Shown here piece by piece: positions 33,633-64,000 of a DNA stretch of 64,000 bases (within the stretch, counting starts at the first letter, position 1; the number at the start of each line of letters is the position of its first letter). The position numbers and the translations under genes are program-made. The notes beneath the pieces were generated by a model. That model was not told the DNA's origin. It was given only the letters and a program-made list of their open reading frames with translations, and made no database searches. Origin of the DNA: Affinundibacterium fentianense (GTDB lineage: Bacteria; Pseudomonadota; Gammaproteobacteria; Burkholderiales; Burkholderiaceae_D); NCBI RefSeq assembly GCF_018139545.1, contig NZ_JAGSPJ010000004.1, positions 310,001 through 374,000 of the forward strand, given 5' to 3'.

Positions 33633-33641
33633 TGTGGATAA
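33633..33641 (-). promoter_or_regulatory. DnaA box
   Basis: TGTGGATAA, that is TTATCCACA on the minus strand, a perfect consensus match, within the A+T-rich stretch before the PPK2 stop. Confidence 0.5.
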
Positions 33642-33792
33642 CTTTGTGAATATTTTTTGAATAATTTAGTACCCCAAGGAATCAACATAGAGTCTAGCTG
33701 AGATTTGCTCTATAAGTATATGAAAAATAAGGGAATTTTACGATGTTAAATTTTGTTAAACAATTTCTTGACTGAAATTATTCTTAAAATTT

Positions 33793-33801
33793 TGTGGATA
33801 A
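33793..33801 (-). promoter_or_regulatory. DnaA box
   Basis: A second perfect TGTGGATAA, 160 bases from the first, in the same orientation. Confidence 0.5.
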
Positions 33802-44521: not shown

Positions 44522-44537
44522 TGTTCCACGTGTAACG
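44522..44537. promoter_or_regulatory. parS-like site (degenerate)
   Basis: TGTTCCACGTGTAACG, 13 of 16 matches to TGTTTCACGTGAAACA (some species accept C at position 5). It lies between rsmG and parA. Confidence 0.5.
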
Positions 44538-47279: not shown

Positions 47280-47295
47280 TGTTTCACGTGAAACA
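47280..47295. promoter_or_regulatory. parS site
   Basis: TGTTTCACGTGAAACA, a perfect match to the universal parS consensus, upstream of mnmG. Confidence 0.93.
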
Positions 47296-61303: not shown

Positions 61304-62599
61304 ATGAACCGGTCACCTGACCAGCCTAAAGTCTTTTCGTCTCTGGCTAGTTTTCGGTACCTAATCATGTCTACAAAAGCCTTCTTCACTCTCAAAGAAA
61401 CCCGCTCCGAATTACCGGCAACAAAACTAAATACATTTTTCAACACAAAAAGTCTTTTCGAACCAAAGTCGAAACAGTGGCTGGTTCAATCGCAAACTTG
61501 GGCAGATAGTCGTATTGATCTACTTGCTTTGAATTTACAACCAGCAGCCAATATCGTCACCATCGCCTCTGGTGCATGTCATGCGCTAGCGTATCTCAGT
61601 AAAAGACCAGCAGCAATTCACTGTATAGATGAAAATCCAGCGCAATTAGCGCTTTTGGAAATTAAAGCAAAAGCCTTCATTCACTTACCAGACTACGACG
61701 CTGTGCTCAATTTCTTGGCTAAACCTCATCAAAAAGACAATCTGAAACGATATCAACGTCATATTCGGGCCAATCTATCTGAGCAGGCTAGTCAATACTG
61801 GCAAAAACGGAATCTACTTGGGCGCCCTCGTTACTATGCCTTCAGTGGCAATCTGCAGAACTATGGATACAACAATATAAGCTTACGCACTCTTCGTTTG
61901 CTGCTAATTCAAATCGGGGTTCGTTTTGATGAACTACACAAAGCACACAATCTCACCGAACAAAATCAAATATTTGAGCAACATATTCTCCCAACATTAC
62001 GCAACAAATTCTTTCTGTTCTTAATACAGCAAGATTTCGTTTTAAAACAACTCGGTTTTAGCCGGAATCAAATCGAAAAACTCAGAAATGCCAATCAAGA
62101 CGCGCTTTCAGAGATTTTGGTAAAGAGATTGAGACGACTGTTTTGTGACTTTAACTTCCATGAAAATTACTTCGCACAACAGGCCATTGGTCAACCTTAC
62201 CTCGCAAACGAGCAAGAGAGCCTGCCACTCCACTTACAAAAAACGGTATTTCAAGCACTGCGCCAATATGCGCATAGGATTCACCCACATCGAGAAAATT
62301 TACTGCAGTTCCTAAAAAAACAAAAAGACAAGTCTGTCGATGCTTTTGTACTTCAAGACCATCTCGACTATTTGAATCCTCATGCCATTCAAGATCTATG
62401 GCGAGAAATTGATCGTTGTGCGAGCCATGGGGCGAAGGTTTTGATACGTAGTTTAGGTGCCCAATTCCCGCTTCCACAAATCGTCTTTAAGACAACATTA
62501 GCGAAGTGGAAAACCGATTCTATGTACAACCAATACTTACAAAACCAAGACCGAAGTAGCTTATACGGTAGCCTATTTGTACTTGAGAATATAAATTAA
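61304..62599 (+). CDS. BtaA-like (DUF3419) SAM:diacylglycerol aminocarboxypropyl transferase
   Basis: A 431-residue protein of the DUF3419/BtaA family, whose known members move the 3-amino-3-carboxypropyl group of S-adenosylmethionine to diacylglycerol as the first step of betaine-lipid synthesis, giving methylthioadenosine as by-product. A SAM-binding motif NIVTIASGACHALAYL (about 83-98) and IHCIDENPAQLALLEIKAKAF follow the class I methyltransferase fold, LSYFTFSG-like YYAFSGNLQ and the C-terminal DRSSLYGSLFVLE are family-like. The start may instead be the ATG at 61367 (MSTKAFFTLKE). The second enzyme, BtaB N-methyltransferase, is not found in this window. Lower G+C than the neighbouring genes suggests possible transfer. 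Confidence 0.75.
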   Translation: MNRSPDQPKVFSSLASFRYLIMSTKAFFTLKETRSELPATKLNTFFNTKSLFEPKSKQWLVQSQTWADSRIDLLALNLQPAANIVTIASGACHALAYLSKRPAAIHCIDENPAQLALLEIKAKAFIHLPDYDAVLNFLAKPHQKDNLKRYQRHIRANLSEQASQYWQKRNLLGRPRYYAFSGNLQNYGYNNISLRTLRLLLIQIGVRFDELHKAHNLTEQNQIFEQHILPTLRNKFFLFLIQQDFVLKQLGFSRNQIEKLRNANQDALSEILVKRLRRLFCDFNFHENYFAQQAIGQPYLANEQESLPLHLQKTVFQALRQYAHRIHPHRENLLQFLKKQKDKSVDAFVLQDHLDYLNPHAIQDLWREIDRCASHGAKVLIRSLGAQFPLPQIVFKTTLAKWKTDSMYNQYLQNQDRSSLYGSLFVLENIN

Positions 62600-62633
62600 G
62601 ATAAAAATAGAAAGGTAAAAAAACACTTTTTCC

Positions 62634-62642
62634 TGTGGATAA
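62634..62642 (-). promoter_or_regulatory. DnaA box
   Basis: TGTGGATAA, perfect consensus on the minus strand. Confidence 0.55.
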
Positions 62643-62666
62643 GTCTTTGCATATCTTGAGGAGTTA

Positions 62667-62771
62667 ATGTGCAAAACCATTACCACTGTCCACACTCGAA
62701 ATCTTATGCAGAAACTATTCTTTTTCTGTACAAGCATTGTCCTAGTCTTTATCCTTGCTCTAAACCGTTGA
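62667..62771 (+). CDS. Possible 34-residue membrane peptide
   Basis: An ATG frame preceded by GAGGAG, at only three bases spacing, which is shorter than ideal. The product is MCKTITTVHTRNLMQKLFFF followed by a hydrophobic stretch (CTSIVLVFILAL) and NR, a single-helix peptide. Could be chance in A+T-rich DNA. Confidence 0.3.
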   Translation: MCKTITTVHTRNLMQKLFFFCTSIVLVFILALNR

Positions 62772-62791
62772 TTACATGGTAGTAAATCGAC

Positions 62792-62842
62792 TTGTCCACA
62801 AAAATAGTCATCGTTAACTACTATTACTATGTATATATATAC
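62792..62842 (+). promoter_or_regulatory. Origin-unwinding-like element 1 (DnaA box, GTTAAC, trio repeats, TA-rich)
   Basis: TTGTCCACA (one mismatch to the DnaA box), 12 bases, GTTAAC, then TACTATTACTAT-type trios and ATATATATA. The same order and the same 12-base spacing recur at 63877. Arrangement matches the bacterial basal unwinding system of a DnaA box followed by trio repeats and an AT-rich unwinding region. Confidence 0.5.
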
Positions 62843-62896
62843 CTTATGTATACAAAGCAAAGAGCTTGTTTCTCGATCTACATTTCTAAATCTCTT

Positions 62897-63694
62897 ATGA
62901 CCATTTCCTTAAAACCAAATACAACTGGCCTCATCTTTGCAATGCGTGAAGAACAAGAGGGATTAGAATCGTTTATTCAAAATAAACAGGTTCATCAAAT
63001 TGCGAAACGTCGCTTCATTCAAGGTCAATTATGGGGTCATCCTGTCGTCATGGTTCTAGCAGGAATTGGTAAGGTCGCTGCCGCCAGTACAACGAGCCTG
63101 TTAATTCATCATTTTCAGATCAACCAATTGATTTTAAGCGGTGTTGCAGGCGCTGCTGATCCCGCCCTAAAGGTCGGGGATATTGTGATAGCGAGAGAAT
63201 TACTACAGCACGATATGAATGCCTCACCTTTATTTCCTCGTTTCGAAATTCCACTCACAGGAAAATCACGATTCTTCGTAAATAAAAATTTGCATCTAGA
63301 ATTGCAAAAAGCGACAACGCTATTTGTCCAAAATATACAAAAATACATTCCCGAGTCGCTACGAAAAGAATGGGACTTAATGAAAATTGAAATGTATTCA
63401 GGACTAGTCGCTAGCGGTGATCAATTTATTCATGAGGCAGCGATAGTAAATCAATTAAAAAAAGAATTGCCTGATCTGTTAGCGCTAGAAATGGAAGGAG
63501 CCGCGATAGCGCAAGTCTGTGATGAGCACGATTTGGAATTCGCAATCTTACGAACGATATCTGATAATGCAAACGAAACAGCGTCTATAGATTTTCAAAG
63601 TTTTGTTAATCAAATTGCTGCTCCCTATACAGTAGGAATTTTGAAAAACTATTTTGAAAATAAGGAGCAAATATTTGATACAAACAACACTTAA
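62897..63694 (+). CDS. MTA/SAH nucleosidase
   Basis: A 265-residue nucleoside phosphorylase-fold protein that hydrolyses 5-methylthioadenosine and S-adenosylhomocysteine to adenine and the thio-ribose. Start at the ATG at 62897 (MTISLKPNTTGLIFAMREEQ). Catalytic residues of the family are present: E19 in AMREEQEG, E200 in LEMEGAA and D223 in TISDNAN. It is somewhat longer than the E. coli enzyme owing to an extra segment near residue 150. It follows the BtaA-like gene, whose reaction produces methylthioadenosine, so a functional pairing is likely. The ribosome site is weak. Confidence 0.85.
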   Translation: MTISLKPNTTGLIFAMREEQEGLESFIQNKQVHQIAKRRFIQGQLWGHPVVMVLAGIGKVAAASTTSLLIHHFQINQLILSGVAGAADPALKVGDIVIARELLQHDMNASPLFPRFEIPLTGKSRFFVNKNLHLELQKATTLFVQNIQKYIPESLRKEWDLMKIEMYSGLVASGDQFIHEAAIVNQLKKELPDLLALEMEGAAIAQVCDEHDLEFAILRTISDNANETASIDFQSFVNQIAAPYTVGILKNYFENKEQIFDTNNT

Positions 63695-63730
63695 GGTTGA
63701 AGTATGAAAATAATTTTATGTGAATAAACT

Positions 63731-63739
63731 TGTGGATAA
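63731..63739 (-). promoter_or_regulatory. DnaA box
   Basis: TGTGGATAA, perfect consensus, 30 bases after the nucleosidase stop region. Confidence 0.6.
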
Positions 63740-63876
63740 GATCGGCAAAATTTGTGCAAAACACGTTGAAAAAGCAGAACAAGAAATTTTATTCAAAATC
63801 TATTACAGCGTCATACAAGAATTTTGAACTGACTTATGAATTGTTTAGAGCCTTGATTTTTATTAGTAAATATCGC

Positions 63877-63927
63877 TTATCCACAAAACTTACCAACGTT
63901 AACAACTACTACTATTCATATATATAA
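63877..63927 (+). promoter_or_regulatory. Origin-unwinding-like element 2 (DnaA box, GTTAAC, trio repeats, TA-rich)
   Basis: A perfect TTATCCACA, 12 bases, GTTAAC, then ACTACTACTATT and CATATATATAAA. It has the same layout as element 1. In Bacillus subtilis a DnaA box followed by CTACTACT-type trios and an AT-rich stretch is where the origin opens. Confidence 0.55.
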
Positions 63928-64000
63928 ACTTATTCAATTAAAAGAAACAGCCCCCCGTTTTAAAGCTCCCAAATAAACAGTTTAAATAATTCACATTTGT

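What the first reader, a model, noticed from the sequence alone, without database searches (positions are those of the whole stretch)
62792..63927. Twin origin-unwinding-like elements flanking the MTA/SAH nucleosidase gene
At 62792 and 63877 the same module occurs in the same direction: DnaA box (TTGTCCACA and TTATCCACA), exactly 12 bases, GTTAAC, CTACTAT-type trios, then ATATATATA. In well-studied origins a box followed by trios and an AT-rich stretch is where DnaA opens the strands. Additional perfect boxes are at 62634 and 63731. The parS cluster is 15-19 kb away, which fits an origin neighbourhood. Two separate modules 1.1 kb apart around a gene would be an unusual bipartite origin.
Basis: partly seen in the sequence, partly recalled or inferred. 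Interest (0 to 1): 0.72.

Follow-up and report, generated by a model that had tools for sequence, protein, structure and literature searches.

The report
Twin replication origin in Undibacterium
This Undibacterium chromosome carries, 1.1 kb apart, two full-length copies of what is likely its replication start site, and 39 of the 43 genomes examined in its genus (this one included) hold two or more; if both copies can start replication, this would be a long-conserved exception to the one-origin-per-chromosome rule.

Summary
Each is about 226 bp: an inverted DnaA box, 158 bp, a DnaA box, 12 bases, GTTAAC, DnaA-trios, AT-rich DNA. In 99 of 104 modules (five genera) an IHF-like site sits at -31, the offset of E. 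coli oriC. GC skew is negative in 31 of 32 window steps and turns positive 2 kb right of the modules; dnaA lies on another contig with no clean switch. A sequence model finds two or more units in 39 of 43 Undibacterium genomes and, by hand count, in 310 of 392 family genomes. Among the 12 best-scoring genomes of other families, 8 have the unit within 60 bp of the 3' end of dnaA. So the unit is very probably oriC, moved from dnaA and duplicated before the genus diversified. The nucleosidase gene between the copies is incidental. Whether both fire is untested. Against: skew flips cleanly in 5 of 7 Undibacterium genomes and 12 of 20 others; some of this strain's boxes are imperfect.

The parts
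62626..62851 (+). oriC unit 1 (match to sequence model R1)
   Evidence: G000:C56:372626-372851, E 4.3e-41, 141.7 bits (window = C56:310001-374000); this unit is in the model's training set
62634..62642 (-). inverted distal DnaA box of unit 1 (R4-like)
   Evidence: perfect TTATCCACA on the minus strand, 158 bp upstream of the proximal box
62761..62773 (-). IHF-like site of unit 1 at -31
   Evidence: TAAACCGTTGATT, 0 mismatches to YAANNNNTTGATW; same offset in 99 of 104 modules
62792..62800 (+). proximal DnaA box of unit 1 (R1-like)
   Evidence: TTGTCCACA, one mismatch; TTATCCACA in all six relatives L011-L016
62813..62818 (+). GTTAAC element of unit 1, 12 bases after the box
   Evidence: role unknown
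62818..62829 (+). DnaA-trios of unit 1 (CTA CTA TTA CTA)
   Evidence: first CTA 17 bases after the box
62830..62845 (+). AT-rich stretch of unit 1
   Evidence: AT 0.78 over 40 nt after GTTAAC
62897..63694 (+). MTA/SAH nucleosidase gene between the units (bystander)
   Evidence: NF004079 255.3 bits, PF01048 148.3 bits; found in 10 of 30 Undibacterium loci
63710..63936 (+). oriC unit 2 (match to sequence model R1)
   Evidence: G000:C56:373710-373936, E 7.7e-33, 114.9 bits; also in the training set
63719..63727 (-). inverted distal DnaA box of unit 2 at -158
   Evidence: TTATTCACA, one mismatch
63731..63739 (-). second inverted DnaA box of unit 2 at -146
   Evidence: perfect TTATCCACA on the minus strand
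63846..63858 (-). IHF-like site of unit 2 at -31
   Evidence: TAGAGCCTTGATT, one mismatch
63877..63885 (+). proximal DnaA box of unit 2 (R1-like)
   Evidence: perfect TTATCCACA
63898..63903 (+). GTTAAC element of unit 2
63906..63917 (+). DnaA-trios of unit 2 (CTA CTA CTA TTC)
   Evidence: first CTA 20 bases after the box
63918..63927 (+). AT-rich stretch of unit 2
   Evidence: ATATATATAA; AT 0.85 over 40 nt after GTTAAC
47280..47295 (+). parS site (others with mismatches at 44522, 45722, 47975)
   Evidence: perfect TGTTTCACGTGAAACA; consensus recalled

Best explanation
The window holds two complete E. coli-type oriC-like units in tandem, 1.1 kb apart and on the same strand, which together are likely the chromosome's replication origin, moved far from dnaA. 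Predicted working of each unit: DnaA binds the proximal box and the inverted box 158 bp (about 15 helical turns) away; IHF bends the DNA at -31; DnaA is led from the proximal box onto the trios of one strand and opens the AT-rich stretch; helicase is loaded there. Shown: anatomy, spacing, conservation, the skew switch, and that the copies separated before the sampled part of the genus diversified. Inferred: that the unit is oriC, and that either unit can open, so that the pair acts as one origin region with two start points. Untested: DnaA and IHF binding, unwinding, which unit fires and how often.
For: Skew negative in 31 of 32 window steps and positive from 66 kb, cumulative minimum at 66027; further stretches of the contig are negative on the left (4 of 4, two near zero) and positive on the right (4 of 4). 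Other Undibacterium: clean minus-to-plus at the units in G006, G013, G015 and G037; at dnaA none of the five genomes sampled there (G006, G013, G015, G036, G037) nor the own dnaA contig shows a clean switch. Inverted box (at most one mismatch) within 156-159 bp in 103 of 104 modules, IHF-like site exactly at -31 in 99 of 104 (control blocks mean 0.32, maximum 4), box-to-GTTAAC 12 or 13 bases in 104 of 104; E. coli R1 and the IHF match beside it (two mismatches) are also 31 apart. Two or more units in 39 of 43 genomes of the genus; in 38 of these 39 on one contig and one strand, in G029 on two contigs. In other families, 8 of the 12 best-scoring genomes have the unit within 60 bp of the 3' end of dnaA. 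18 first and 18 second units form two groups, support 95/93. Most of noncoding unit 1 is better conserved than the gene beside it. IHF alpha gene present.
Against: No binding, unwinding or read-depth data. The skew minimum (66027) lies 2.1 kb right of unit 2, and G020 and G036 show a step, not a clean sign change. In other genera the flanks switch in 12 of 20 genomes only, and wider sampling of G267 and G110 was inconclusive. In this strain unit 1 has an imperfect proximal box, unit 2 an imperfect distal box and a long branch; unit 2 is no better conserved than the gene over most of its length. 58 of 392 family genomes show one unit and 24 none at E 1e-8, so one unit can suffice in some.
Confidence: 0.7

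Rival explanations
1. Only one unit opens; the other is a DnaA- and IHF-binding regulator (a titration or datA/DARS-like site) that kept the origin look after duplication.
For: The two copies differ consistently and evolve separately; this strain's unit 2 is diverging (long branch, imperfect distal box); 58 of 392 family genomes have a single detected unit.
Against: Both copies keep box, spacer, GTTAAC, trios and AT-rich stretch in fixed order. A titration site would need no trios or unwinding stretch, and datA is described as DnaA boxes plus an IHF site (PMC5742627, passages).
Confidence: 0.2
2. A bipartite origin of the B. subtilis or H. pylori kind: the units form one looped complex and need each other.
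For: Clusters about 1 kb apart around a gene resemble oriC1-dnaA-oriC2 (PMC8235120, passages). Distal boxes in B. subtilis are proposed to act through a loop (PMC6669920, passages).
Against: The two bipartite origins described there carry their DUE in one subregion; here both clusters have an unwinding-type element. Spacing between units varies from about 0.48 to 1.1 kb with no clear helical phase in 18 distances, and 4 of 28 multi-unit genomes of other genera carry units in opposite orientation.
Confidence: 0.12
3. Promoters or an interspersed repeat, not an origin.
For: Unit 1 lies just upstream of the nucleosidase gene.
Against: The units persist where no gene of that size lies between them; strong model matches occur only at this one cluster in each Undibacterium genome (in G029 split over two contigs); unit 1 has no match in 72,556 plasmid or 50,697 phage records; the skew switch.
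Confidence: 0.02

Closest known systems
E. coli oriC (R1 - IHF site - R4)
   Same: Proximal box beside the unwinding region, outward-facing distal box, IHF-like site at -31 from the proximal box, 12-13 bases between box and GTTAAC (E. coli 13 between R1 and the unwinding region, PMC8235120 passage), location away from dnaA.
   Different: Distal box 156-159 bp away instead of 180; clear CTA trios and a GTTAAC element; two or three copies per chromosome.
Basal unwinding system (BUS) of B. subtilis, H. pylori and others
   Same: DnaA box, spacer, repeated CTA (3'-GAT-5') trios, AT-rich stretch (PMC8287927, sections 13-14 read).
   Different: Box-to-first-trio distance is 17-21 bases, longer than the program's 16 unless a weak second box is counted; combined with an IHF-like site; present twice. 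The published program ends with a single candidate in almost all genomes.
Bipartite origins of B. subtilis and H. pylori
   Same: Two DnaA-box clusters around a gene (PMC8235120, passages).
   Different: Those have the DUE in one of the two subregions and flank dnaA.
[quoted passage not shown]
   Same: Proposal that some chromosomes hold two oriC (passages); a V. cholerae strain with two functional oriC is cited in PMC10225481 (passages).
   Different: The examples in the passages I saw are single strains, some with origins very close together and bipartite; here tandem units are kept through a genus and much of a family.
Burkholderia cenocepacia chromosome 1 origin region
   Same: Two DnaA-box clusters and an IHF site; the authors call the exact origin unclear (PMC4948915, passages).
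   Different: Whether its clusters are these units was not tested.

Membership tests
Chromosomal replication origin (oriC) | Lies at the GC-skew switch | tested here: met
   Own genome and 4 other Undibacterium genomes clean, 2 partial; other genera only 12 of 20
Chromosomal replication origin (oriC) | Cluster of DnaA boxes plus AT-rich unwinding stretch | tested here: met
Chromosomal replication origin (oriC) | Replication starts there in vivo; supports autonomous replication | not testable with these tools
   no reads or bench work
E. coli-type oriC | IHF site at fixed distance from the proximal box | tested here: met
   -31 in 99 of 104 modules and, with two mismatches, in E. coli; sequence only
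E. coli-type oriC | Outward-facing R1 and R4 boxes | tested here: met
   103 of 104 at 156-159 bp; E. coli 180
E. coli-type oriC | Low-affinity DnaA sites between R1 and R4 | tested here: inconclusive
   recurrent weak boxes (at most one mismatch) at -123 (26), -145 (23), -146 (21), -105 (21) and -17 (14) of 104 modules; affinity not testable
BUS | DnaA box followed by at least three trios | tested here: met
   CTA CTA TTA CTA and CTA CTA CTA
BUS | Spacer of at most 16 bases in the published search program | tested here: inconclusive
   17 and 20 bases in the window; a weak second box (4 and 3 mismatches) could satisfy the program's rule
BUS | DnaA-dependent strand opening | not testable with these tools
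   needs the strand-separation assay
Bipartite oriC (B. subtilis/H. pylori type) | Two box clusters but one unwinding element | tested here: not met
   both clusters carry the unwinding-type element

The most novel reading that the evidence does not exclude
A large bacterial family starts chromosome replication from a natural tandem of two or three complete origins, each able to fire, kept apart through the history of the genus as distinct first and second copies: a standing exception to one oriC per chromosome, built from a unit that joins the B. subtilis trio system with the E. coli IHF-bent scaffold.
Probability: 0.5. Interest if true: 0.86.

Novelty: new variant of a known kind. Interest (0 to 1): 0.76.

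Why it matters
One oriC per chromosome is treated as the bacterial norm, and added origins are studied in engineered E. coli (PMC7174701, passages). Here two or three origin-like units are found in hundreds of natural genomes. That makes direct tests possible of whether neighbouring origins fire together, take turns or divide labour. The unit also carries both the trio element and an IHF-like site at the E. coli spacing, while the published BUS score for E. coli is relatively weak (PMC8287927), so it may link the two opening models. It would also warn annotators that a record start at dnaA need not be the origin in this family.

Tried and rejected
Rejected: (1) dnaA just beyond 64000: it is on contig C62. 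(2) The nucleosidase gene as part of the system: tblastn finds it in 10 of the 30 Undibacterium loci L025-L054; in the 10 loci without it where two units were pattern-detected, no stop-free frame over 123 aa lies between them; the other 10 showed only one unit to the pattern. (3) A mobile or plasmid repeat: unit 1 has no match in plasmids or phages. (4) Helical phasing between the two units: no clear pattern in 18 distances. (5) DnaA-box density alone: not above chance. (6) Using the terminus side of G020's skew to choose between units and dnaA: half a chromosome from the units is 2.88 Mb and from dnaA 3.28 Mb, and the sampled change lies between 2.9 and 3.4 Mb, so it does not favour the units.

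Inconclusive: GC skew in other genera with flanks of up to 20 kb and wider samples of G267 and G110. The meaning of GTTAAC is open.

Literature: searches listed no paper whose title or abstract start describes tandem oriC units in Oxalobacteraceae or Undibacterium; the library is open-access only, so this is weak evidence of absence.

Counting notes. The 310 of 392 is my own count from its table; four genomes without a match are not named there. The family scan lists only part of the coordinates, so that units of one genome are neighbours was checked in 28 of 28 multi-unit genomes and in the genus, not in all 310. The 104 modules come from the 60 loci (30 Undibacterium, 30 of four other genera); they had to match a trio pattern, have a box within a set distance and have 300 bp upstream in the locus, so diverged copies are missing and box, GTTAAC and trio conservation are partly built in; the -158 box and -31 site were in no pattern. 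Model R1 was built from 60 of the 104 modules, so the genus and family scans include its training genomes. The tree used the 18 Undibacterium genomes with exactly two pattern-detected units in the locus; one of them, G015, has a third unit that was not in the tree. For the dnaA check outside the family I chose 18 of the 55 genomes with a match, 11 of them because the coordinate already suggested dnaA; the fairer figure is 8 of the 12 best-scoring, all of which are among the 18.

Full report
What is in the sequence. The arrangement box + 12 bases + GTTAAC occurs twice in the window and had mean 0.0 in 200 dinucleotide shuffles, while single DnaA boxes are no more frequent than chance.

Where it lies. 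The window is G000:C56:310001-374000 of a 4.23 Mb genome in 65 contigs. The GC skew is negative in 31 of 32 2-kb steps of the window, still negative at 64-66 kb, and positive from 66 kb on apart from a few later steps; the cumulative minimum over 100 kb is at 66027. Further stretches of C56 are negative on the left (4 of 4, two of them near zero) and positive on the right (4 of 4). dnaA lies on contig C62, with dnaN and gyrB on one side and rnpA, yidC and mnmE on the other by my reading of the ORFs. There the skew is positive on both sides of the dnaA start, and 7 of 8 further stretches of C62 are positive, one on the left being -0.017. The 20 kb round dnaA hold one perfect DnaA box and no module core.

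Comparison within the genus. With two 20-kb stretches on each side, the skew is negative on both left and positive on both right stretches at the modules in G006, G013, G015 and G037; in G036 it rises from -0.10/-0.06 to about -0.01/-0.02, and in G020 from about -0.05 to about zero. With the own genome this is 5 clean of 7. At dnaA none of the five genomes sampled there shows a clean switch, though G037 drifts upward. Twenty samples of G020 are noisy: from 3.4 Mb up to the units all are negative, from the units on to 2.9 Mb they lie on both sides of zero, and the opposite change falls between 2.9 and 3.4 Mb, which does not decide between units (6.15 Mb) and dnaA (base 200). In ten Undibacterium genomes dnaA was located; in all ten it shares a contig with the units and is about 80 to 440 kb away (taking closed records as circular).

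The unit is larger than the module. In 104 modules from 60 loci of five genera (48 modules from Undibacterium), an inverted DnaA box with at most one mismatch lies 156-159 bp upstream of the proximal box in 103; the distance from box to GTTAAC is 12 in 70 and 13 in 34. An IHF-like 13-mer (at most one mismatch) is exactly at -31 in 99, against a mean of 0.32 and a maximum of 4 in control blocks. In E. coli MG1655 the R1 and R4 boxes face outward 180 bp apart, and an IHF match beside R1 with two mismatches is also at -31 (that this is the known site is recalled, and PMC5742627 places it between R1 and R5M). Passages of PMC5742627 state that the spacings DUE-R1 and R1-IHF site are strict in E. 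coli, and of PMC8235120 that 1-2 bp changes between R1 and the unwinding region are severe. The first trio begins 17, 18, 20 or 21 bases after the box (55, 22, 15 and 12 of 104); 17 and 20, and 18 and 21, differ by exactly one trio.

How many copies. A sequence-only model of 234 positions was built from 60 of these modules. In the genus, matches fall in two classes: E 6.2e-24 or better, and E 5.6e-6 or worse. In the first class 38 of 43 genomes have two, one (G015) has three, three have one (G026, G031 at a contig end, G039) and one has none (G024, 70% complete). In 38 of the 39 genomes with two or more they are on one contig and one strand; in G029 they are on two contigs. In the family 368 of 392 genomes have a match at E 1e-8; by my hand count of its table 310 have two or more, in 25 of 44 genera; in g6 and g19 three is the rule (38 of 40 and 51 of 56), while g5 and g7, with small genomes, have one in 18 of 21 and 9 of 13 and never two. 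A simpler pattern hit 150 of 392 genomes and its reversed control none of those listed; for the looser genus pattern the reversed control hit 4 of 43 genomes. In 30 closed or nearly closed genomes of 15 other genera, the 28 with several units have them within about 3 kb; 24 on one strand and 4 (G165, G196, G206, G057) in opposite orientation. In these 30, dnaA is about 6 kb to 720 kb away, taking the records as circular.

Independent support that the unit is an origin. In other families of the order, weaker matches appear in 55 genomes. I checked dnaA in 18 of them. Eleven were picked because their coordinates already suggested dnaA, so the fairer figure is for the 12 best-scoring genomes, all included: in 8 the unit starts within 60 bp of the 3' end of dnaA on the same strand, in G685 about 530 bp away, and in G483, G507 and G639 elsewhere. 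Over all 18 it is 14 within 60 bp, from five genera of five families; in G603 that match is the weaker of two. The dnaA-dnaN gap is the usual place of oriC in many bacteria (established knowledge). The likely history is one unit beside dnaA, then loss of that linkage and multiplication in this family.

Age of the duplication. In a maximum-likelihood tree of 36 units from 18 Undibacterium genomes, the 18 first and the 18 second units fall on two sides of one branch (support 95/93; 0 of 500 label shuffles as good). The copies have not been homogenised, which argues that both are kept for use. Across seven sequences, unit 1 from 62641 on scores 0.90-0.99 per 30-base block, unit 2 from 63721 on 0.85-1.00, and the nucleosidase gene 0.71-0.93: unit 1 is the better conserved.

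The gene between. It is an MTA/SAH nucleosidase. It lies in 10 of 30 Undibacterium loci, and in one locus of another genus (L055) it lies beyond the second unit; in 10 Undibacterium loci two units stand without it, with only short frames between. It is a bystander.

Against. Skew flanks in other genera switch in 12 of 20 genomes, and wider samples of two of the other eight, G267 and G110, were inconclusive. The minimum is 2.1 kb beyond unit 2. In this strain unit 1's proximal box and unit 2's -158 box each have one mismatch and unit 2 has a long branch. Nothing here shows DnaA or IHF binding, unwinding, or use of both copies.

Known and new. The parts are known: E. coli-type scaffold, trio system, claims of double origins in single chromosomes (PMC4403523, PMC10225481, passages), two box clusters at B. 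cenocepacia chromosome 1 (PMC4948915, passages). I found no description of tandem complete units kept through a family (listings of searches; open-access library only). I therefore rate it a new variant of a known kind.

Noticed in passing
window 33633-33801: Two further perfect DnaA boxes on the minus strand, 160 bp apart, in an AT-rich stretch where the 2-kb skew is positive for the only time in the window; possibly a DnaA-titration or DARS-like site.
   Followed up: no
window 63710-63936: Unit 2 of this strain is diverging: long branch, imperfect -158 box but a perfect box at -146.
   Followed up: partly
window 62813-62818 and 63898-63903: GTTAAC (GTTTAC or GTAAAC in some matches) between box spacer and trios is nearly invariant and has no assigned role.
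   Followed up: partly
L008 3991-5756: A LytTR response regulator and a histidine kinase gene lie just right of unit 2, on the minus strand.
   Followed up: no
G196, G206, G057, G165: Four genomes of other genera carry the two units in opposite orientation, about 0.8-3 kb apart.
   Followed up: no
family genera g6 and g19: Three units per genome are the rule (38 of 40 and 51 of 56).
   Followed up: partly
window 61361-62599: DUF3419 protein gene immediately left of unit 1.
   Followed up: no
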